Below, piece by piece: positions 6,611-28,275 of a stretch of DNA of 64,000 nucleotides. The notes under the pieces were generated by a model, which saw only the letters and a list, made by a program, of their open reading frames with translations, was not told the origin of the DNA and searched no databases. The position numbers and the translations under genes were made by a program. Origin of the DNA: a virus; IMG/VR virus record IMGVR_UViG_3300033571_019687, positions 1-64,000 of that record. One strand, written 5' to 3'. The first letter of the stretch is position 1. Every line of letters starts with the position of its first letter.

Positions 6611-9013
6611 TTATTCGGTAATAACCAATAGCTCACCGTTTTCAATATAAATCTTAAAAAATGCATCATATCCACCTTGTTTTATTATTGCATCAGATAG
6701 TTTATTTTCTACTTCAAATTCTATCACACGTTTAACCTCTCTTGCACCATATTTACTAACATCTGATTTACTTAATATATAATCTAATACTTCCGGTTCG
6801 TATCCTACCTCAATATTATTGACTCTTATCTCATCAATCAGATCAATCATTTCTTTCTTAATAATGGCTTTAATGGTATCATCATTAAGATCTTTTAAGA
6901 ATATCATCTCATTTACTCTATTAATGAATTCTGGTTTAAAGTATTTATTAATCTCATCTTTAATTATATTCTCTTTATAATCTTTTTGAGTGGTAAATCC
7001 TACAGGTTTATAATCTATACTTTTTTTAACCCCTATATTAGATGTACAGATAATTATAGTGTTTTTGAAATCTACTTTAACCCCGCTCGCATCAGTAGCA
7101 TAACCTTCATCAAAAATATTCATAAATATATCAAATACAGATGGATGAGCCTTTTCTATTTCATCTAATAATATAACACTATATGGTTTATTTTTTACAC
7201 TATTTGTTAATTGACCACCTTCATCGTAACCAATATATCCGGGAGGTGACCCTAATAACCTTGATGCATCATGTTTTTCTTTATATTCATTCATATCAAG
7301 TCTAATTAATGAGGAATCTGATCCATAAACCTCTTTAGCAACTGTTTTAGCGATAAGTGTTTTACCTACACCAGTACTACCAATTAATGCTATTACAGTT
7401 GGTTTACCATGCCTTTTAACACCAACTTTACTTCTTTTAATTGCATAAGATATTTTTTTTACAGCATCTGCTTGACCAATAATAATTGAATTTAAATTAG
7501 TTTCTAAATCTTCTAATACCTTAAACTCATTATTATCAACTCGATTTAAAGGAATACCGGTCATTGATGAAACTACATGTCTTATGGTATCCGGATTAAC
7601 TGGTATTATATTTGTTTTTCTATCATTATCGTATTTTAATCTTGCCTCTTTAAGTTGTTGTTCAACTTTTTGTTCTTCTTGTTTTAATTCCGCAGCGACT
7701 TCATATCTTTGTTCAATAACAACATTTTGTTTTTCTTGTCTAATCACTTCCAGTTCCTTTTCTAATTGTAATATATCTTTTGGTAAATCTATTGTCATTT
7801 GAGTTTTTGACCCAGCTTCGTCCATAATATCTATTGCTTTATCAGGGAATGCTCTATTGGTTATGTATTTATCAGCCAAATTAAGTATTTCCTCTATCAC
7901 ATCATCAGTATAACGAACTCTATGATGTAATTCATAAATATACTTAATACCATTAAGAATATCTCTAGTTTCATTTTTTGAAGGTTCCTTAACTATTATT
8001 TTCTGAAACCTCCTAGATAATGCCGAATCTTTTTCTATTACTCTAAACTCACTATTTGTCGTTGCTCCTATACATTGTATATCACCACGAGATAATGCTG
8101 GTTTAAGCAAATTTGCCAAATCGCTTGCACCATGACCACCGCCTGCACCAACAATTGTGTGCATTTCATCAATAAACAATACAATGTTGCGGTCTTTTCT
8201 ACAAATATCAATAATGGTTTTTATCTTCTCCTCAAATTGCCCTCTAATACCCGTTCCAGCCACGAGATTGGTTAAACTTAATTCATATACCTTTTTATTA
8301 AGCAACTGCGCTGGTGCGGTTTTATTTGCTATTCTGAGGGCTAATCCTTCTATGATCATAGTCTTACCACTACCAGCCGGCCCAACTAATGCCGCACAGT
8401 TTTTTTTCTTCCTTAATAATATTTGACATATTTGGTTTATCTCATCATCTCTACCAATTAAATCATCTATTCTACCTTCTCTAGCTTTTTGAACCAAATC
8501 AATAAAATATTCTTGATTAGAACTTTCCTCATTTTTTAATTCAACTTTTTGTTGTTGAGATCTGGTTTTTCTAACTGTTTTTTCCTCTTTTTCTTCAACT
8601 ACTTTATTGGATGGGTTAAATTTATTTAAAACTTCCGGTGTTACGTTATGAGGTGCTAACACTCTATATAATTTAGTACCTTTTCTTGATAATATATCCA
8701 ACGCAATCTCTTTAACATATCCATAATCGTCTTGGATTTTTGATGAAAATTTATCAAGAATATTCTCTAACACCCTTTCACTTATAGGTCTATTAGTATA
8801 ACTAATGTCCTTATCTAACGTCGATATATACCTTGTTAAATCATTTAACATGTCATCATAAGATTTAACATTATTTCTAAAATGTTTAGAAATTGGATTA
8901 TTATCGGTAAGTAAAGCATATATAAGATGTTCTGTTTTTACTCTACTAGAACTATACTTTACTGCTAAATTTAATGCTTCCTCATATATTTTATCAAAAA
9001 ATTCATTCTTCAT
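6611..9013 (-). CDS. ClpC-type AAA+ unfoldase
   Basis: 800-aa two-ring Hsp100 protein. A Clp-N repeat domain (residues 1-135) begins FFDKIYEEALNLA. The D1 ATPase has Walker A GPAGSGKT (about 209-216) and Walker B LFIDEMHT (about 280). The middle coiled coil is short (about 415-460, with a UVR-like EQRYEVAAELKQEEQ), typical of ClpC rather than ClpB. D2 has Walker A GSTGVGKT (about 545), Walker B VILLDEIEKAH and an EFINRVNE arginine-finger region. After the second sensor there is a PVGF segment (V671-G672-F673) at the place of the ClpP-docking tripeptide of ClpC/ClpA. ClpB lacks this loop. I infer an ATP-driven unfoldase that can couple to a ClpP protease, presumably the host's because no ClpP is encoded here. 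Confidence 0.92.
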   Translation of the reverse strand: MKNEFFDKIYEEALNLAVKYSSSRVKTEHLIYALLTDNNPISKHFRNNVKSYDDMLNDLTRYISTLDKDISYTNRPISERVLENILDKFSSKIQDDYGYVKEIALDILSRKGTKLYRVLAPHNVTPEVLNKFNPSNKVVEEKEEKTVRKTRSQQQKVELKNEESSNQEYFIDLVQKAREGRIDDLIGRDDEINQICQILLRKKKNCAALVGPAGSGKTMIIEGLALRIANKTAPAQLLNKKVYELSLTNLVAGTGIRGQFEEKIKTIIDICRKDRNIVLFIDEMHTIVGAGGGHGASDLANLLKPALSRGDIQCIGATTNSEFRVIEKDSALSRRFQKIIVKEPSKNETRDILNGIKYIYELHHRVRYTDDVIEEILNLADKYITNRAFPDKAIDIMDEAGSKTQMTIDLPKDILQLEKELEVIRQEKQNVVIEQRYEVAAELKQEEQKVEQQLKEARLKYDNDRKTNIIPVNPDTIRHVVSSMTGIPLNRVDNNEFKVLEDLETNLNSIIIGQADAVKKISYAIKRSKVGVKRHGKPTVIALIGSTGVGKTLIAKTVAKEVYGSDSSLIRLDMNEYKEKHDASRLLGSPPGYIGYDEGGQLTNSVKNKPYSVILLDEIEKAHPSVFDIFMNIFDEGYATDASGVKVDFKNTIIICTSNIGVKKSIDYKPVGFTTQKDYKENIIKDEINKYFKPEFINRVNEMIFLKDLNDDTIKAIIKKEMIDLIDEIRVNNIEVGYEPEVLDYILSKSDVSKYGAREVKRVIEFEVENKLSDAIIKQGGYDAFFKIYIENGELLVITE

Positions 9014-10315: not shown

Positions 10316-11866
10316 ATGATTAAACAATTAATTCTTGAAGAAGTTTATGGTAACATCATTGTTGCTTATCATAGAACAAAGGTTGAAGATATTATCAATA
10401 AGGTATATGACACTGGTTGGCAACCAAAAGATGGTGATATGTACGGAAAAGGATTTTATGGTACATTTACATTAGAAGCACAATTAAGAGATGGTATGAT
10501 TGGTTATGGACCAGTTATTGGTAAATTCCGTATTGATATTAATAACTTTGTTATTTTTGAATGGGATATATTTCAAAAAACAAAGTTAAAACAATACCCA
10601 AAAGCAAATGAAAGTAACTTTATTGAATTACAGTTAATAAAATATGATATTATTAAAAACAATAATGAATTAAACTCAATTATTAATTACACAAATAATT
10701 CGATTTCGTACTCTTCTGATATTGCTATAAAATTTTTTAATGAAAATACTAAAAATTCACTTAATGTTGATGGTATAATATTTAGAGGTAGACAAGATGG
10801 GGATGTTGTTGTTGCATATAATACTAACGTTATTCACCCATTATCAGTATCTTATAATAATGGTAAAAACTTTATTACTATGAGTGAAATTAATAAAGAA
10901 TACCATACATCAAGATTCATGAAGAAGGGGCTTGATCCTAAAAAAGATTATACTAGTAATTTTAATTTAAATTCTTCTAGTTTATTCATAAAACCATTGA
11001 AGTATATAATAAACTATTTAAAAACCAATGGTTTATCTGATTCTCAAATAAACAGTTATATAAAAACTTATGTACCTAAATGGCATGCAGAATTAGTAGA
11101 TAAAAATCCTGATGTTATAAGTGATTTTACAGTTAATGATTGGGAGAGTTTATATATGAATTGGCCTAGATATGTATATAAATATCCTAGTGGTTTAGAT
11201 AAAATTAGTAGTGAGGTTCTTGGTAAACTTTATTTATTATTACCTGATCTATATGAAAAATACAAATCTGGCGTTAATAGATTAAACATCTATGAGCTTT
11301 ATAGAATACTTATTTTTAATACTAAGGCGATGAACGATATATCAGACGATGAATTATATAAATATGTCAATAGATTTGGTTCATATCAAATAATAGACTT
11401 AATAGTTAAATATCCGGGTAGGTTTAATGTATTAAAATATGGGTTAATAAATGGATCTGATTGGGCAAATCTTTTTATAAAGCGACCAGATTTAATCGAT
11501 AAGTATAGAGATCAAGTAGATAGATTTAGATCTGATGATTGGATAAAATTATTTAGTAAATTACCTGAATCTATAGACAAACTTCCAGAAGGTATAGAAT
11601 ATATAGAAGATGTTAGAGCTTGGGATAGATTACTATTTTCTAACCCTTCACTTATAGACAGATTTCCGGATAAAAAAGGTTTATTATCTCCAGAAAAATG
11701 GTATCGTATTTATCAGACCAATTCATCTATCATAGATAAACATCCAGAAGGGTTAGATAAAGTGAGACATTTTCATTTAATAACCTTATTAAAACAGTAC
11801 CCTTATTTATTAGAAAGATACCCAAAATATTTTAAACCAGCCGCCAAAGAATATGGATTCAAATAA
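10316..11866 (+). CDS. Putative ADP-ribosyltransferase (ART/PARP-like) with C-terminal helical repeats
   Basis: 516 aa. Residues 14-190 look like an ART/PARP fold: VAYHRTKVEDI (H19), then MYGKGFYGTF (Y43-T50), then DGIIFRGRQDGDVVVAYNTNVI near residue 155. This order resembles the H...GxGxY...strand pattern of PARP-type NAD-binding domains, though the last catalytic residue is not certain. Residues about 230-510 contain degenerate repeats of roughly 35-45 residues built on DWxxLFxxxPxLIDKxP (for example DWANLFIKRPDLIDKY and DWIKLFSKLPESIDKLP). The N-terminus, MIKQLILEEVYG, contains an (I/L)xE site like the prohead-protease-cleaved leader of T4 Alt, itself a packaged ADP-ribosyltransferase. I infer a late, possibly head-packaged and injected effector. 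It overlaps the next gene by 14 nt. Confidence 0.6.
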   Translation: MIKQLILEEVYGNIIVAYHRTKVEDIINKVYDTGWQPKDGDMYGKGFYGTFTLEAQLRDGMIGYGPVIGKFRIDINNFVIFEWDIFQKTKLKQYPKANESNFIELQLIKYDIIKNNNELNSIINYTNNSISYSSDIAIKFFNENTKNSLNVDGIIFRGRQDGDVVVAYNTNVIHPLSVSYNNGKNFITMSEINKEYHTSRFMKKGLDPKKDYTSNFNLNSSSLFIKPLKYIINYLKTNGLSDSQINSYIKTYVPKWHAELVDKNPDVISDFTVNDWESLYMNWPRYVYKYPSGLDKISSEVLGKLYLLLPDLYEKYKSGVNRLNIYELYRILIFNTKAMNDISDDELYKYVNRFGSYQIIDLIVKYPGRFNVLKYGLINGSDWANLFIKRPDLIDKYRDQVDRFRSDDWIKLFSKLPESIDKLPEGIEYIEDVRAWDRLLFSNPSLIDRFPDKKGLLSPEKWYRIYQTNSSIIDKHPEGLDKVRHFHLITLLKQYPYLLERYPKYFKPAAKEYGFK

Positions 11867-12581
11867 TTTTATAGAACAAAATTTTGGACTTGAGAAAACA
11901 TTATGTCCAGCCATCTTCACAAAAAATGATGATGGTGAATATATTATAAAAGCAGACGTTAGAAAAAAACTTCTAACAATTGCCGACATATTCTTAAAAT
12001 CTATTGGTATAGATAAATTAGAATATGAAGATGTAATACTTGTCGGATCAATGGTTAATTATAACTGGTCTGATTACTCTGATATTGATTTACATTTAGT
12101 TATTGATTATAAAGATATAAGTGAGAATCATGAAACTAGCGAGATATTGTTAAAAGCTAAAAAAGATTTATTCAATATTGAACAGGATTTAACAATAAAT
12201 GAATTTGAAATTGAGTTGGGTACTCAAGATATTAATGAGAATCTTGAAAGTGCTGGTGTTTATAGTGTATTTTATAATAAGTGGATAAAACAACCTAAAA
12301 AAGAAGGGTACGATATTGATAAACAAGTTATATTCCGTAAATATAACCAGTTTTTAGAAGATTTCAAAAAAGTAAAAGAAATTAAAGACTTCAAAAAAAG
12401 GTTAGACGCAATAAACAAATTAGCAGATAAAATAAAAAGATACCGAAAAGCTGGTCTAAAAGCAAATGGCGAATTAGGTGTCGAAAATTTAGTTTTTAAG
12501 TATTTAAGGCGAATAGGTTTTATAGATACGTTAAAGCGTTTAAAAACGCTTACTATTAACCGTTTAGGTTCCCTTGAATAA
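11853..12581 (+). CDS. Predicted nucleotidyltransferase (Pol beta-type fold)
   Basis: 242 aa. VGSMVNYNWSDYSDIDLHLVID (G65-S66, D77, D79) is the GS-x(10)-DxD signature of minimal nucleotidyltransferases, and an acidic strand near residue 129 (FEIELG) can supply the third metal ligand. The rest is helical and Lys-rich, with FKKRLDAINKLADKIKRYRKAG in the middle. The substrate is not predictable; the family includes enzymes that add NMP to protein, RNA or antibiotic. Its start lies within the last 14 nt of the ART-like gene, so the two are translated together and may act in one process, both modifying targets with nucleotide-derived groups. It could also be a phage RNA- or tRNA-end enzyme. Confidence 0.7.
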   Translation: MDSNNFIEQNFGLEKTLCPAIFTKNDDGEYIIKADVRKKLLTIADIFLKSIGIDKLEYEDVILVGSMVNYNWSDYSDIDLHLVIDYKDISENHETSEILLKAKKDLFNIEQDLTINEFEIELGTQDINENLESAGVYSVFYNKWIKQPKKEGYDIDKQVIFRKYNQFLEDFKKVKEIKDFKKRLDAINKLADKIKRYRKAGLKANGELGVENLVFKYLRRIGFIDTLKRLKTLTINRLGSLE

Positions 12582-17124: not shown

Positions 17125-18729
17125 TTATCTGAAAGCTTCTGTACCGAAAGTATCAACGTTTTTAACATAGATAACACCATAGAAACGGTTGTTAACCATT
17201 TTCTTAGCATATCTAGTCATCAACATTTTACCCGGAGCACCAGTATGATAGTTATACATCATAGGTGACATGGTAACAGGGATGTAAGGAGCATAGATAT
17301 AACCTGAATCAAGTACGCTAGTACCTTTTCTACCTAACAATAGAATGTTAGCAGGCATATAAGCATCTTGGTAAACAGTGTATCTACCTTGTAGTGAACC
17401 TACTCTTTCAATACCCATGTTGAATTTATTTTCTTCTGGCTCAGCATTTGACACGTGGAAGTGTTCAAGATCGTTGAAGATAGCAGCAACTTCGTTAGAA
17501 GTTACAATCCAGTTAGCACCACCTTTAAGAGTAGCTTTGTTAATTTGAGCAGAAACCTTGTTAATCTCTGTGATAAGAGTTTGGTTCCATTCTTTTTGAG
17601 TGTACAAAGTTACACTTGGACCACCGATAGCAGGAATTTGTTTGGTTGAAGAACCAAGGTAATCCCAAGTACGTCTCCAAGCAGCACCTTTGATAAGATC
17701 TCTAAGAACTTCTCTGTCAATTTCAGCAGCAACTTGTTCTGACATCAATGTTGTCAATTCAGTTTCTGCGTCAATGTTTTGGAAGTTTTTAACGTCTTGT
17801 GCAAGTTCTGGTGACCATGTAACTCTCATTTTTCTTTCTTGAACTTCAACAGTTACAGAAGTAATGGTGAAGCTAACTTGTGCCATTTCATCAGCAAGTT
17901 CCAAAGAAGCATAAGTTTTACCTGTCAAAGTAACACCAGTCAAGTTAACGCTAGTTGTACCCAAGTTGCTAACAGATAGGTAAATTTTCTTATCTGGAGA
18001 GATAATTGATTTACTCCATTTTTGAGCAGCAACGTTGAATACTAAGTTATCGTTATTAAGACCAAGGGTTGACAAGAACTCCTCATTGTTAAGGTCAGTT
18101 GTTGATGTAATACCTGTAAAGGTAAATTCAAGAATTTCTGTTGCACCAGATGCGATAGCAGTACCAGACTTGGTTGTGAAACCTTGACCACTAGCAGCAT
18201 AGTTAACTAGGTTAGCAGTAGTTGTTTGAGCAGTCTGTACAGTAGGAGCACCTTTAGATCTGTCGAACAACTCATTGTCATAACCCAAGTCATACAAGTT
18301 TTTGCTGTCAGTGTAATCTGATCCAGAAACCATTGATTGTTGGTTACGGCCATTAGCATCAAATTGTGATCTACCAATTTGTGGTACAAAGTAGAAAAGT
18401 TTACCGATAGGCAAGTTAATAGCTTGAATGGTTACAATCTCATTAACAAGCAATCTTGTAAATACTCTTCTAATTAATGGGAAAATCATTGTTTCGAAAG
18501 AACCTTCGCTACCCAATGTGGTTGATTCGGCAAGAACTACTGCTCTACCTTCATTAACCATCCAGTTAGCTTGGTTTTCATACAATGTTGCCATTAGGTC
18601 TTTTTGATTGTCATCAAGGTCGAACAAGTAACCAACTTCTTCCCATTTTTGCATGGTTTGTTCTTTAATAAGTTGTGTTAACTTACTTTGAGTTGTTCCA
18701 AACCCTGAATTTTCACTGAAAATACTCAT
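17125..18729 (-). CDS. Major capsid protein (T4 gp23-like)
   Basis: 534 aa, close to T4 gp23 (521 aa). The N-terminus (SKLTQLIKEQTMQKWEEVGYL, then LYENQANWMVNEG) and FPLIRRVFTRLLVNEIVTIQAI, IGKLFYF and AQDVKNFQNIDAETEL fit the gp23 family. The N-terminal propeptide probably ends at LAE68|S, the same position and pattern as the T4 gp21 cleavage site (IAE65|A). It forms the hexamers of the head. It is downstream of the scaffold gene, as in T4 (gp22-gp23), with 26 nt between them. Its base composition appears less AT-rich than its neighbours, as expected for the most abundant product. No separate gp24-like vertex protein is seen in the window. Confidence 0.93.
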   Translation of the reverse strand: MSIFSENSGFGTTQSKLTQLIKEQTMQKWEEVGYLFDLDDNQKDLMATLYENQANWMVNEGRAVVLAESTTLGSEGSFETMIFPLIRRVFTRLLVNEIVTIQAINLPIGKLFYFVPQIGRSQFDANGRNQQSMVSGSDYTDSKNLYDLGYDNELFDRSKGAPTVQTAQTTTANLVNYAASGQGFTTKSGTAIASGATEILEFTFTGITSTTDLNNEEFLSTLGLNNDNLVFNVAAQKWSKSIISPDKKIYLSVSNLGTTSVNLTGVTLTGKTYASLELADEMAQVSFTITSVTVEVQERKMRVTWSPELAQDVKNFQNIDAETELTTLMSEQVAAEIDREVLRDLIKGAAWRRTWDYLGSSTKQIPAIGGPSVTLYTQKEWNQTLITEINKVSAQINKATLKGGANWIVTSNEVAAIFNDLEHFHVSNAEPEENKFNMGIERVGSLQGRYTVYQDAYMPANILLLGRKGTSVLDSGYIYAPYIPVTMSPMMYNYHTGAPGKMLMTRYAKKMVNNRFYGVIYVKNVDTFGTEAFR

Positions 18730-20359: not shown

Positions 20360-21136
20360 TTAACGTTTTTTAAATTTATTAAGGAATTCAGCAAATGCAG
20401 CTTGAGATCCTGTATTATTATTTGTTTGTGTATTATAAGAACTAACTTCTTTAGTTACAAGAGTTTCATCATATTTATTTTTATCTTCAAGGTTTGGAAA
20501 TAAATATGCTCCCGGAGTAGAAGGTGTTGAAACAACATCCCAACAAATAAGTTCAAAATCTTCCTGTACAATTTTCTTATTTCCAGATTTTTTAACACTA
20601 CCTACACCCCTAGATGATAAACCGATAACACAACCATATTCAAGCATTAATGCTAAGTAATCGGCATCAGTAGAACATATACCAGATTCTCTAAATCCTC
20701 TACTAACAAGTATTTCTACTTTACCAAGTAATGTTGGTCCTTCCCAAAGTACTTCAACAATTCTAATTGGTGGACCATGTTTTAATGAAATTACAGTACT
20801 TTCTGGGTGATCTAGTTCTCCTATAGCAGATCCTTTTTTTACAACTTGTTCATCATATCTAGCTACTTCTTTATCTAATACATTACCCGGATAAACTCTA
20901 CCATTTCTATTTAATGTATCTTTTTTTTGCAGAATAGCATAATAATAGAGAGGTTTGCTATAATCAAAATTCATTTTTTTATAACCAACCTCTTTAATTA
21001 ATTCTGCTCTTTCAGTTACTAATGTACGATCTTCATTATAACAAATAACGCCGGCATCTCTTTCAATTAAAATACCTTTACCTTCATCTTCTGCCAGTAA
21101 TTCTCTGTATTGTGACATATATTTACGTTTAAACAT
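20360..21136 (-). CDS. Prohead core protease (T4 gp21-like)
   Basis: 258 aa from the ATG at 21136. A TTG at 21157 would overlap the upstream gene. IGELDHPES carries the catalytic His and GLSSRGVGSV the catalytic Ser of the gp21/herpesvirus assemblin-type serine protease fold, followed by FELICWDVVSTPSTPGAY, a conserved gp21 segment. The enzyme matures the prohead by cutting after (L/I)xE in capsid, scaffold and internal proteins. LLAE|D near residue 16 is a plausible self-cleavage site. It lies between a small ATPase gene and the DUF4494-like gene. Confidence 0.9.
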   Translation of the reverse strand: MFKRKYMSQYRELLAEDEGKGILIERDAGVICYNEDRTLVTERAELIKEVGYKKMNFDYSKPLYYYAILQKKDTLNRNGRVYPGNVLDKEVARYDEQVVKKGSAIGELDHPESTVISLKHGPPIRIVEVLWEGPTLLGKVEILVSRGFRESGICSTDADYLALMLEYGCVIGLSSRGVGSVKKSGNKKIVQEDFELICWDVVSTPSTPGAYLFPNLEDKNKYDETLVTKEVSSYNTQTNNNTGSQAAFAEFLNKFKKR

Positions 21137-21143
21137 AAATAGG

Positions 21144-21899
21144 TCATCTGTTACCAATTAATTTATTAAAAATAATATCAAGATTATCACCTTTATTAAT
21201 GGTAAATTTGTTATTTAACATAAGCTCCATGACGCTATTATCAGATTTATAATGATTATATAACTGATCATAAGTAATATTAACATCATGTTTTATAATA
21301 TTAACACCTAAACCTTGATGTAAAGTTTTATCAACTGAGTTTGCGGTTAGTAAATAAAAAATATCCATTTCGTGTATCCTAAACAAATCGGTTATAGAAT
21401 CTGGATTAATGCTTAGAGTATCATCTATATCATCAATAACAACCACTAGATTATCTCCAGTATCTTTAAACATTTCTACCATATCGGTTTCAATATTTAA
21501 CCAGCTTTCCAAATCTGTTTCAAGTACAATATAACCTCCATTAGTTGTTTCAGATTCAATTGTACCAATAAATGAATTAAGTACTTTAGTTTTACCACTT
21601 TTTTTGCCTATAAGAATATTAACATTCGGGTAAACAAAACCTAAACTCTTTTTAGTTTCTAAAAATTCTTGTTTGTAAAAATTGTTTAATCTATTAATTA
21701 GATCTTCATGAATTTTTTTATTGTAGTCAAATAGTTCATCTTTTGGTTTAATTTCATCATTAGTTACATGCTTTGCCTTTTCAAGTATAAAACCTGTAAC
21801 TTCATTTGCTTTAATTTTATAATGACCAGTTTGAAGTCTATCTTTTGTTTTAGGATAAAGATAATAACCTTTATCGTCTCCAGCCCATCCTCTTTCCAT
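21144..21899 (-). CDS. Putative P-loop ATPase in the head operon
   Basis: 251 aa. ILIGKKSGKTKVLNSFI is a Walker A motif (GKKSGKT) and NLVVVIDDIDD a Walker B (hhhhDD). FYLLTANSVDKT resembles the sensor-1 strand of AAA/STAND-type ATPases. The N-terminus (MERGWAGDDKGYYLYPKTKDRLQTGHYKI) is unusual and Gly/Tyr-rich. The C-terminus ends in NNKFTINKGDNLDIIFNKL. I do not know a T4 head gene of this type between portal and protease. It might assist prohead assembly or initiator formation. It ends in TGA, 7 nt before the protease ATG. Confidence 0.6.
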   Translation of the reverse strand: MERGWAGDDKGYYLYPKTKDRLQTGHYKIKANEVTGFILEKAKHVTNDEIKPKDELFDYNKKIHEDLINRLNNFYKQEFLETKKSLGFVYPNVNILIGKKSGKTKVLNSFIGTIESETTNGGYIVLETDLESWLNIETDMVEMFKDTGDNLVVVIDDIDDTLSINPDSITDLFRIHEMDIFYLLTANSVDKTLHQGLGVNIIKHDVNITYDQLYNHYKSDNSVMELMLNNKFTINKGDNLDIIFNKLIGNR

Positions 21900-25693: not shown

Positions 25694-27688
25694 TTATTTC
25701 ATCGGTCCAAATAAATCTTCATATAGTTTCTTTTGACCACCAAAAACATCTACGCTACCAATTACCGGTTTAAAATTAACAATGTCTTTTTTATTACCAT
25801 AATCTGGTATATAAACATTTGTATTTATCGCTGTAACATTAGGTTTTGCGCTATATAAAAACCATGAACTATTAAGGGTTGTTTGTGCTTCTGCCCCTAC
25901 TAATCTCTTATATTGTGTAGAGCACAATAACAATGCCATACCGAGTGACATGATTAAGTCATCATGGCTACCTTTTGTGTGATCGGGTCTACCATTGATA
26001 TAAACGAATTTATTTAGTTCCGCAATAAGTCTGGCACTTCTAATTTTAAATTCTTCCCTAGAAACACCTGTTTCCATTGCTGCAACAATTTCTACTCGTT
26101 TATTTTTTTTACCCATATCATATCCGGGATAAACTTCACCACTAGCAGCTTTATGCATTTCATTATCTGATAAATCATAATGGAATAATCGTCTTGGTAA
26201 TCCCATATCTTGTAGCTTACGAACTGTTACAAGACCCATACCTCCAGTAATATCAAATGTTGATATAGCATTATACTTCATGGCATACTCATAAACAAGT
26301 TCTGCTGCAATATCTGGTTTTATTTTACCATAATATTCCACAACTTGTTCATATTCCGTAACATCTATAATTTGCATACCAGTATAATCTTCACTATCAC
26401 CTCTGGATACGTCTATGGCTAGAATATATTTATGACCTTCTTTTGGTTCAGCCCATATCCATACATCACTATTCCATTTTCTATCTTTATATAAAGGGTC
26501 TTTTACGTTTTCTCTATCTTGTCTTTGTATGATCTCACTTTCTATTACGTTATTACCAGAACCATTAAATGCACATTCAAGTTCTTGATTAACTTTACGT
26601 TTATCATACTTCATATCCCTTGCCATTTTTTCATACCAAGGGGAGAAAGGTTTATAACCTTGACTTATTTTATCTTCAATGTCTCTTAAAGTGAATTTAA
26701 AACCTTCACAATAATAACTTGTGGTTACACTATTAATATCATCAAGACTTCTAGCTATTAAACCCCCCTTTTCTTTAAATTGTGCTTTAGTATTACCAAT
26801 CGAATTTGATATAAATTCATCAACATCTATAGATTCATTAGTGGTATCACTATTATATGGTAGTTTTTTATATTTAGAGTAATATTCTTTATTAAACGTG
26901 AAATCGTCTCCAAGTACATTTTCTATAATTATCTCAGTCTTTTCATCATCCGGTTTTAACATATAATCAACAAGATCATTTGTTCTAACCATTTTAAGAC
27001 CTTTATTATATCTTGGGTCATTATACCATTTTAAATGAGTAATAAGGAAGTTACTATTTCCGTTTATAGCTGACTCATAAGCTTCATAATAAATTGGATC
27101 TTGGCCATTAGGGGTTGATATAAGTATTATTCTACCACCAGTAGAAATAGATGCCATTGTAGCTGCCCAGAAGTCCTCTGCAACATCGATAAATGCTGCT
27201 TCGTCCATAATGATCAGTGTTGGTGTATAACCTCTCAAAGCATCATTAGATGTACCAACGGCTTTAACCTCACAGTTATTACTCAATTTAAAATGATATG
27301 CCGCATCCTTTTCAAACGTAATGTTTAACCATGATGGAAATTCTTTTATAAAGTTCTTAATTTTATTTAAGAACTCACCAGCCATTGTTAACTTATTGGC
27401 AATAATAAGAATTCTATGGGGAGATTTTGGTAAAGCAAATGAACATATTGAAGAACAATAAGCGGCAGTTGTCGTAGATACACCAGCTTGTCTGTACTTT
27501 AATGTGATTTGATGTTTATCAGAGTAATGATAATTATTAATCAGTTTTTTCTGATCTTCAAACAAAGTAAATCTGACAAACGAGTTTTTTGTTAAGTCAA
27601 ACGTCTTAAGGTAAGTCTCGATTGCATATATTGGGTCTTTATGACCTTTTAAAAATTCAGCATTTATTTGTTGTTTGGTTATTGGCAT
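25694..27688 (-). CDS. Terminase large subunit (T4 gp17-like)
   Basis: 664 aa (T4 gp17 is 610). Translocation ATPase: adapted Walker A KYRQAGVSTTT (residues 64-74, with the Lys/Arg at the front of the loop rather than GKT), Walker B LIIMDEAAF (about residue 160) and coupling motif ISTPNGQDP. Nuclease: ILAIDVSRGDSEDYTG (about residue 426) with a first Asp ligand, and a late SHDDLIMSLGMAL segment with the last acidic cluster. It cuts concatemeric DNA and packages it through the portal. Its start overlaps the end of a shorter ATPase-like gene by 10 nt. Confidence 0.93.
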   Translation of the reverse strand: MPITKQQINAEFLKGHKDPIYAIETYLKTFDLTKNSFVRFTLFEDQKKLINNYHYSDKHQITLKYRQAGVSTTTAAYCSSICSFALPKSPHRILIIANKLTMAGEFLNKIKNFIKEFPSWLNITFEKDAAYHFKLSNNCEVKAVGTSNDALRGYTPTLIIMDEAAFIDVAEDFWAATMASISTGGRIILISTPNGQDPIYYEAYESAINGNSNFLITHLKWYNDPRYNKGLKMVRTNDLVDYMLKPDDEKTEIIIENVLGDDFTFNKEYYSKYKKLPYNSDTTNESIDVDEFISNSIGNTKAQFKEKGGLIARSLDDINSVTTSYYCEGFKFTLRDIEDKISQGYKPFSPWYEKMARDMKYDKRKVNQELECAFNGSGNNVIESEIIQRQDRENVKDPLYKDRKWNSDVWIWAEPKEGHKYILAIDVSRGDSEDYTGMQIIDVTEYEQVVEYYGKIKPDIAAELVYEYAMKYNAISTFDITGGMGLVTVRKLQDMGLPRRLFHYDLSDNEMHKAASGEVYPGYDMGKKNKRVEIVAAMETGVSREEFKIRSARLIAELNKFVYINGRPDHTKGSHDDLIMSLGMALLLCSTQYKRLVGAEAQTTLNSSWFLYSAKPNVTAINTNVYIPDYGNKKDIVNFKPVIGSVDVFGGQKKLYEDLFGPMK

Positions 27689-28275
27689 ACAAATTTAACA
27701 TTATTTACATTACCTTCTTGTATTAAACTCAACTGTTTTAATACTTGATTCATATCACTACCTTTTTCAACACTAGATGTATAAATAAGTCTACCTATAT
27801 TTCCTAATGAAGATTTAATTAACGAAATATCATAAACATTTAAATTAGCATATACCATTTCATCCATAATCACATCTGTAAAAGTTTCCGCATAAAAATC
27901 ATTTTTATTAAAAGTACTAAACTTAATTGAATTACTATTCTCAAAAGTTAATATATTTCTCGATTTTATGTATTCAATATAATCATGATTAGTTTTTAAT
28001 TCACGTTCTATTAAACTGGTAAAATGTGATGCAGATGCGTAATTGGGTGTTAAATATAAAATTTTAGTATTATACCCATTTAGTAGTTGTTTAATACAAT
28101 ATGCAATATTAATACTACTAATTCCAGTCATTCTATGTTTTAATATGATAAGATTATCCATACTATTATCATATTCACTAATAATACTCTTTTGATAAGG
28201 ATATAAATCAATCTTATTATTTTTGTAGTTAGTCAGTTTTAAAACATTAGTTGTATAATTTTCTAATAAGTACAT
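27679..28275 (-). CDS. Terminase-like ATPase-domain paralog (no nuclease)
   Basis: 198 aa. It aligns with the ATPase half of the adjacent TerL: KHRMTGISSINIAYC (46-60) against KYRQAGVSTTTAAYC, KILYLTPNYASASHFTSLIE against RILIIANKLTMAGEFLNKIK, TDVIMDEM (D138-E139) against LIIMDEAA, and GRLIYTSSVEKGSD against GRIILISTPNGQD. It stops where TerL's linker and nuclease would begin. The loop lacks the usual threonine pair, so ATP hydrolysis is uncertain. Position directly before terL and a 10-nt overlap suggest joint synthesis. I infer a duplicated, specialised ATPase subunit or regulator; it could replace the small terminase. Confidence 0.7.
   Translation of the reverse strand: MYLLENYTTNVLKLTNYKNNKIDLYPYQKSIISEYDNSMDNLIILKHRMTGISSINIAYCIKQLLNGYNTKILYLTPNYASASHFTSLIERELKTNHDYIEYIKSRNILTFENSNSIKFSTFNKNDFYAETFTDVIMDEMVYANLNVYDISLIKSSLGNIGRLIYTSSVEKGSDMNQVLKQLSLIQEGNVNNVKFVCQ

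What the first reader, a model, noticed from the sequence alone, without database searches (positions are those of the whole stretch)
6611..9013. Phage-encoded ClpC-type unfoldase keeps the VGF ClpP-docking loop
The short UVR-like middle domain is of the ClpC kind, and V671-G672-F673 stands exactly where the ClpP-docking tripeptide (IGL/IGF/VGF) is found in ClpA/ClpC, between the D2 sensor strand and EFINR. Known: ClpB chaperones lack this loop. Inference: the phage may redirect host ClpP to new substrates, such as host regulators, defence proteins or misassembled virions. Full-length Hsp100 genes in phages are rare to my knowledge, and none with an intact docking loop is known to me.
Basis: partly seen in the sequence, partly recalled or inferred. 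Interest (0 to 1): 0.78.

Follow-up and report, generated by a model that had tools for sequence, protein, structure and literature searches.

The report
Phage ClpC unfoldase with ClpP-docking loop
This T4-like phage carries its own version of a bacterial protein-unfolding motor (ClpC) with the hook that latches onto the ClpP protein shredder, and the same phage also encodes its own ClpP; such genes turn out to be common in phages of this kind rather than unique to it.

Summary
6611-9013 (minus strand) encodes an intact 800-aa ClpC-type Hsp100 with a short ClpC M-domain, and V671-G672-F673 aligns with the ClpP-docking VGF/AGF of B. subtilis and S. aureus ClpC; ClpB has no such loop. The uniqueness claim is wrong. 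The tripeptide is kept in all 94 phage ClpC-type proteins I compared (Gly 94/94, Phe 92/94), inside a loop that otherwise varies, and Hsp100s occur in 21 of 31 capsid relatives of this phage. Phage Clp ATPases, and one phage with both ClpA and ClpP, are already published. The window protein falls in a phage-only clade that is sister to Bacteroidota ClpC.

(1) The same 134-kb phage record encodes its own ClpP (192 aa, complete Ser-His-Asp triad, confident ClpP fold, separate from the phage's prohead protease), so host ClpP is not the only candidate partner. (2) The window protein has lost M-domain residues whose mutation in S. aureus ClpC gives adaptor-independent proteolysis, and the D1 pore-loop tyrosine. 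Relatives with no detected ClpP keep the loop, so host ClpP is probably a real partner for the family. Best reading: the unfoldase half of a ClpCP protease. Docking, partner and substrates are untested.

The parts
6611..9013 (-). ClpC-type Hsp100 unfoldase, 800 aa, complete ORF
   Evidence: PDB best hits B. subtilis and S. aureus ClpC, E about 1e-160; PHROG 4871, 700 bits; tree
8624..9004 (-). N-terminal domain (aa 4-130), diverged; Pfam Clp_N not reached
   Evidence: eight predicted helices; no Clp_N match at E<=0.001; alignment to S. aureus ClpC from residue 9
7799..8500 (-). AAA+ domain D1 (aa 172-405)
   Evidence: Pfam AAA and AAA_lid_9; Walker and arginine-finger motifs
8240..8254 (-). 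D1 pore loop 1 (aa 254-258, TGIRG): K255G and Y256I against TKYRG in relatives
   Evidence: Y256 in 39/39 and K255 in 38/39 relatives
7619..7783 (-). Short ClpC-type (UVR-like) M-domain coiled coil (aa 411-465)
   Evidence: 71 residues in the 405-475 region against 72 in ClpC and 133 in E. coli ClpB; predicted helices 412-433 and 437-467
7679..7684 (-). K444-Q445, at the positions of S. aureus ClpC R443-D444 (repressive M-domain contacts)
   Evidence: R in 37/39 and D in 38/39 relatives; mutant phenotype of R443A/D444A in PMC5699869
6899..7516 (-). AAA+ domain D2 (aa 500-705), pore loop GYIG
   Evidence: Pfam AAA_2, E 4e-57
6935..7030 (-). ClpP-docking loop (aa 662-693), 32 residues; usually 39 in phage relatives
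6995..7003 (-). V671-G672-F673 docking tripeptide
   Evidence: aligned with VGF/AGF of B. subtilis/S. aureus ClpC; Gly 94/94, Phe 92/94, first position V/I/M/L 94/94 in phage homologues
6677..6889 (-). D2 small domain (aa 709-779)
   Evidence: Pfam ClpB_D2-small, E 3.5e-13
20360..21157 (-). Separate T4-type prohead (head maturation) protease: control showing that the ClpP gene outside the window is not the head protease
   Evidence: PHROG 207, E 9e-35
17125..18729 (-). Major head protein used to define the phage's relatives
   Evidence: PHROG 138, E 1e-61; relatives
11853..12581 (+). Gene that travels with the Hsp100 gene in relatives (shared neighbourhood)
   Evidence: tblastn 34-43% identity within about 4 kb of the Hsp100 in 11 of 16 related loci

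Best explanation
A phage-lineage ClpC: a hexameric two-ring AAA+ unfoldase descended from a Bacteroidota-type ClpC, which threads proteins through its pore and feeds them into a ClpP barrel that it grips with the V671-G672-F673 loop. In the family at large the barrel is probably the host's ClpP. In this phage it may be the phage's own ClpP (record positions 125667-126245, outside the window), host ClpP, or a mixture. The likely use is to remove host or phage proteins during infection. Loss of the M-domain pair R444/D445 suggests weaker self-repression and less need for host adaptors. Shown by computation: ClpC type, intact ATPase motifs, constrained docking tripeptide, presence of a catalytically complete phage ClpP, phage-only clade. 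Inferred: docking, partner identity, derepression, substrates.
For: Docking tripeptide aligned with ClpC VGF/AGF and the most constant part of an otherwise variable loop in 94 phage homologues; G672D and F673D at the same positions abolish ClpC-ClpP interaction in S. aureus (PMC12521514). Fold matches: first the B. subtilis ClpC-ClpP integrative model 9a66, then chains of the S. aureus MecA/ClpC/ClpP complex. Tree: phage-only clade (SH-aLRT 93; 97) inside or sister to Bacteroidota ClpC (99/100). The loop is also kept in Clp ATPases that phages took from other sources: with Staphylococcus ClpC, with ClpA, and in a second Bacteroidota-type capture. Own ClpP: (160 bits), triad S99/H122/D171, AF2 pLDDT 93.9 and Foldseek TM about 0.92 to ClpP, better to ClpP models than to ClpP-related head proteases (162 vs 99.6 bits). 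Relatives with no detected ClpP keep the loop. M-domain: with PMC5699869.
Against: No binding or degradation data. The window ClpC and ClpP both sit on long branches (0.92-1.76 and 1.18 changes per column), so either could be specialised or under weak constraint. The D1 pore-loop tyrosine is lost. The ClpP docking pocket has unusual residues at E. coli positions 114 (Thr) and 189 (Gln). The two genes lie far apart in the record. Among MCP relatives of at least 100 kb, Hsp100 and ClpP show no association (both 4 including the window, Hsp100 only 4, ClpP only 2, neither 2).
Confidence: 0.72

Rival explanations
1. Host-only partnership: the phage ClpC docks on host ClpP and competes with or replaces host ClpC/ClpX; the phage ClpP does something unrelated.
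For: Hsp100-bearing capsid relatives with no ClpP in the sequence held (16 records of 56-166 kb) keep VGF/LGF/MGF/MGL in the loops read; if all carried a ClpP, the chance of missing it in every one would be about 0.004 or less for genomes up to 300 kb (0.03 with a thinned set). Host ClpP is widespread in bacteria (control includes Bacteroides). The phage ClpP pocket has two unusual residues.
Against: The window phage does carry a ClpP with full triad and fold; a peptidase barrel without an unfoldase would be of little use.
Confidence: 0.35
2. ClpP-independent chaperone or disaggregase for virion or replication proteins; the VGF loop is a leftover of descent from ClpC.
For: T4-like phages need assembly chaperones; moraphages also carry DnaK/DnaJ (PMC12619734); D1 pore loop altered.
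Against: The tripeptide is invariant while its flanks drift (entropy 0-1.5 against about 3 bits) across many phages and independent captures; a leftover would decay. The M-domain is ClpC-sized, not the DnaK-binding ClpB type.
Confidence: 0.15
3. The gene is decaying or a neutral passenger in this phage.
For: Long branch, lost D1 pore Tyr and M-domain R-D pair.
Against: Intact 800-aa ORF, all ATPase motifs and the docking tripeptide retained; the neighbourhood is shared with relatives.
Confidence: 0.08
4. The phage ClpP is a head-maturation protease unrelated to the unfoldase.
For: ClpP-like folds serve as prohead proteases in many phages; several PHROG head-maturation families match P0002.
Against: The phage has its own T4-type prohead protease at 20360-21157 (PHROG 207); P0002 scores 162 bits with a ClpP model against 99.6 with the ClpP-related head protease model, whose cut-off of 120 it misses; it lies among glycosyltransferase-like genes, not head genes.
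Confidence: 0.05

Closest known systems
Bacterial ClpC (B. subtilis, S. aureus) of the ClpCP protease
   Same: Two AAA+ rings, short M-domain, VGF/AGF docking loop at the same place (same residue numbers as in S. aureus), same fold
   Different: Phage-encoded, diverged N-domain, D1 pore Tyr lost, R443/D444 equivalents changed to K/Q, shorter docking loop than phage relatives
Clp ATPase of the 'moraphages' (VOG02072, annotated ClpA), large Bacteroidota-infecting phages (PMC12619734)
   Same: Core Clp ATPase gene in large phages of Bacteroidota that also carry T4-type head, baseplate and uvsW genes; very probably the same gene lineage as here (not tested directly)
   Different: Annotated only as ClpA in a table; docking loop, ClpC identity and a ClpP partner were not found discussed in the passages read; the window record is 134 kb
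Agrobacterium phage Atu_ph07 and Rak2-like phages
   Same: ClpA-type unfoldase with IGF/IGV/VGF/IGG loop plus a phage ClpP in one genome (PMC6102473)
   Different: Derived from ClpA, without the M-domain; independent capture
SPO1 Gp53
   Same: Phage control of a ClpCP protease during infection (PMC6873191)
   Different: An adaptor acting on host ClpC, not a replacement unfoldase
ClpB/Hsp104 disaggregases
   Same: Hsp100 core; NCBIfam ClpB model is the top hit by E-value
   Different: Far below the ClpB equivalog cut-off (649 vs 1232 bits); no docking loop and a long M-domain in ClpB

Membership tests
ClpC | Two AAA+ domains with Walker A/B and arginine fingers | tested here: met
ClpC | Short (about one-coil) M-domain between D1 and D2 | tested here: met
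   71 residues against 72 in ClpC and 133 in ClpB
ClpC | ClpP-docking [LIV]-G-[FL] loop in D2 | tested here: met
   VGF 671-673
ClpC | Groups with ClpC in a tree, apart from ClpA and ClpB | tested here: met
   within a clade that joins Bacteroidota ClpC (99/100); long branch, so exact place unsure
ClpC | Clp_N domain recognised by Pfam | tested here: inconclusive
   no hit at E<=0.001, but that search's control also missed B. subtilis; eight-helix N-domain predicted
ClpC | Repressive M-domain residues F436/R443/D444 | tested here: not met
   Y437, K444, Q445; a regulatory feature, not part of the family definition
ClpC | Binds ClpP and degrades substrates with it | not testable with these tools
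   needs biochemistry
ClpB | Long M-domain and NCBIfam equivalog cut-off | tested here: not met
   649 vs 1232 bits
ClpA | No M-domain; NCBIfam equivalog cut-off | tested here: not met
   638.5 vs 993 bits; M-domain present
ClpP (partner gene P0002, outside the window) | Ser-His-Asp triad and ClpP fold | tested here: met
   S99/H122/D171; AF2 93.9, Foldseek TM about 0.92
ClpP (partner gene P0002, outside the window) | NCBIfam ClpP cut-off | tested here: not met
   162.5 vs 249 bits for the best model: diverged member; Pfam cut-off is met (160.9 vs 20.2)
ClpP (partner gene P0002, outside the window) | Hydrophobic docking pocket | tested here: inconclusive
   L23, L48, Y49, Y62, Y82, V90, Y112 kept in kind; T92 (as in about half of the phage set), T114 and Q189 depart from E. 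coli; pocket positions taken from my own knowledge of E. coli ClpP

The most novel reading that the evidence does not exclude
The phage brings a complete, self-sufficient ClpCP protease whose unfoldase is freed from M-domain repression and host adaptors, so that it degrades host proteins during infection without the host's controls.
Probability: 0.2. Interest if true: 0.7.

Novelty: new member of a known kind. Interest (0 to 1): 0.45.

Why it matters
Clp genes in large phages have been listed but mostly treated as assembly chaperones. The tripeptide that is useful only for holding ClpP is the most constant part of the loop across phages, including independently acquired Clp ATPases, which points to proteolysis as the function under selection. 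That makes 'which proteins does the phage destroy, and with whose ClpP?' directly testable. The natural changes at the two repressor positions in the window protein offer a test of the adaptor-control model of ClpC.

Tried and rejected
ClpB-type chaperone: rejected on M-domain length, docking loop and equivalog score. Phage ClpP as head-maturation protease: unlikely. Association of phage Hsp100 with phage ClpP as evidence of partnership: not supported among MCP relatives of at least 100 kb (4/4/2/2); 7 of 8 Hsp100-bearing contigs of at least 200 kb have a ClpP, but the base rate in such contigs was not measured. Shared origin of window ClpP with the ClpPs of its capsid relatives: not recovered, long branch; no gene order shared around ClpP. 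A near-identical contig (TerL 99%) for dN/dS: it does not hold the Hsp100 gene. Window DNA (1-24000) has no megablast match in phage records. No coordinates were returned, so loop exposure could not be computed.

Full report
What is there. The window is bases 1-64000 of a 133,874-base virus record with T4-type genes: major head protein at 17125-18729, prohead protease at 20360-21157 and terminase at 25694-27688. The gene at 6611-9013 is on the minus strand and encodes 800 aa without interruption. Its best solved relatives are ClpC of B. subtilis and S. aureus (E about 1e-160). It belongs to PHROG 4871, 'ATP-dependent protease' (700 bits), so the family was already known in phages. No NCBIfam equivalog cut-off is met (ClpB 649 of 1232, ClpA 638.5 of 993).

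The docking loop. In an alignment with reference proteins, V671-G672-F673 falls on VGF of B. subtilis ClpC, AGF of S. aureus ClpC and IGL of E. coli ClpA, while E. coli ClpB has a deletion there. In 94 phage ClpC-type sequences, viral-contig relatives plus the window, the middle residue is Gly in 94, the third is Phe in 92 (Tyr 1, Leu 1) and the first is V, I, M or L in all. The residues just downstream have entropies near 3 bits. In S. aureus ClpC, G672D and F673D abolish interaction with ClpP (PMC12521514). The AlphaFold model (mean pLDDT 81, pTM 0.57) places the tripeptide in a coil between two helices with pLDDT about 72-74, and Foldseek finds first the B. subtilis ClpC-ClpP model and then chains of the S. 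aureus MecA/ClpC/ClpP complex. By residue composition alone the motif would occur in the loop 3-6% of the time; conservation makes chance untenable.

Descent. On 514 core columns, with the M-domain and docking loop left out, the window protein lies within a phage-only clade (37 rows, SH-aLRT 93; 28 rows, 97, with a mixture model and long rows removed) that joins Bacteroidota ClpC (99 and 100). Other phage Clp ATPases come from elsewhere: Staphylococcus phage SpP with S. aureus ClpC (99), Rak2-like phages and Atu_ph07 with ClpA (99), and LR756502/LR745206 with Bacteroidota ClpC (98). These keep a ClpP-type tripeptide too, though in Rak2-like phages the third residue varies (IGF, IGV, VGF, IGG). 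The end branch of the window protein is long, so its exact place is unsure. A gene at 11853-12581 lies within about 4 kb of the Hsp100 in 11 of 16 related loci, and thyA in three, which suggests inheritance within the phage lineage rather than recent capture.

Frequency. Hsp100 genes are present in 21 of 31 records with a related major head protein, and at least 583 viral contigs hold relatives. In the annotated phage collection 199 of 50,697 records match, 32 over most of the length, and some of these look like bacterial contigs. Literature: Atu_ph07 encodes ClpX, ClpA, ClpB, ClpP and ClpS (PMC6102473); jumbo phage reviews list ClpP, ClpS, ClpA and ClpX (PMC7824862); a Clp ATPase annotated ClpA is a core gene (24 genomes) of the moraphages, large phages predicted to infect Bacteroidota (PMC12619734).

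A second component outside the window. The same record encodes a ClpP at 125667-126245, plus strand (192 aa, P0002). Its catalytic Ser, His and Asp align with S97, H122 and D171 of E. coli ClpP. It folds confidently as ClpP (pLDDT 93.9; Foldseek TM about 0.92). It scores better with ClpP models than with ClpP-related head proteases (162 against 99.6 bits), and the phage has a separate prohead protease. Docking-pocket positions are mostly kept in kind, but positions 114 (Thr) and 189 (Gln) are unusual. Eight of the annotated phage records examined also hold both an Hsp100 and a ClpP; several of these were chosen through their ClpP, so this is not a rate.

Host or own ClpP? Among capsid relatives of at least 100 kb, counting the window, four have both genes, four only Hsp100, two only ClpP and two neither: no association. 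Sixteen Hsp100-bearing relatives (56-166 kb of sequence each) show no ClpP; if every one carried a ClpP, the chance of missing all would be about 0.004 or less for genomes of up to 300 kb (0.03 for a thinned set), yet the loops read there are VGF, LGF, MGF or MGL. So the loop is kept in phages that probably depend on host ClpP, and the window phage may use either. Records are fragments, so absence is weak evidence for any single one.

Departures in the window protein. Against 39 relatives it has changed K255G and Y256I in the D1 pore loop, and R444K (R in 37 of 39) and D445Q in the M-domain. The M-domain pair corresponds to S. aureus R443 and D444, whose alanine mutants degrade casein without adaptor; the activated mutant F436A is toxic to cells in a ClpP-dependent way (PMC5699869). 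Whether K/Q here acts like Ala/Ala is an inference. The D2 ring, which faces ClpP, keeps its pore loop (GYIG) and ATPase motifs.

Mechanism. Most likely the protein is the unfoldase half of a ClpCP protease active during infection. Shown by computation: ClpC type, intact motifs, constrained docking tripeptide, a second gene for a catalytically complete ClpP, phage-lineage descent. Inferred: that it docks, on which ClpP, that it is derepressed, and what it degrades. The nearest experimental precedent for phage control of ClpCP is SPO1 Gp53, an adaptor acting on host ClpC (PMC6873191); here the phage would supply the motor itself.

Verdict. A real and correctly read feature, with a sound but not unique interpretation. 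New member of a known kind; moderately interesting because of the constrained loop, the phage's own ClpP and the natural M-domain changes.

Noticed in passing
L338/L331 (G041), L339/L332 (G062), L334/L337 (G042), L005, L335 (G047): Inteins interrupt the Walker A motifs of Clp ATPases in relatives of this phage: apparent split inteins at D1 Walker A (G041, G062/G063) and at D2 Walker A (G042, with an N-half also in L005), and a contiguous intein with an endonuclease-like insert at D2 Walker A (G047). The window protein has none.
   Followed up: partly
G000 126245-126652 (L007:12245-12652): A 135-aa ORF with an HEFVH zinc-peptidase-like motif overlaps the end of the phage clpP gene by one base, suggesting co-expression; only weak family matches.
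   Followed up: partly
G000 130308-133174 (L007:16308-19174): Cluster of 13 ARAGORN tRNA calls, two with odd anticodon loops (ttgg, tt).
   Followed up: no
window 27679-28275: A 198-aa ORF just upstream of the large terminase looks by eye like a second copy of a terminase ATPase N-terminal half (LKHRMTGIS against LKYRQAGVS in the terminase).
   Followed up: no
phages collection records OR84xxxx and MT83xxxx: Many 'phage' records that match the Hsp100 (for example 'Listeria phage LM', 'Bacteriophage sp.' from faeces) look like bacterial contigs and inflate counts of phage Clp genes.
   Followed up: no
G000 113546-114463 (L012:15546-16463): Phage-encoded RNA polymerase sigma factor (PHROG 351).
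   Followed up: no
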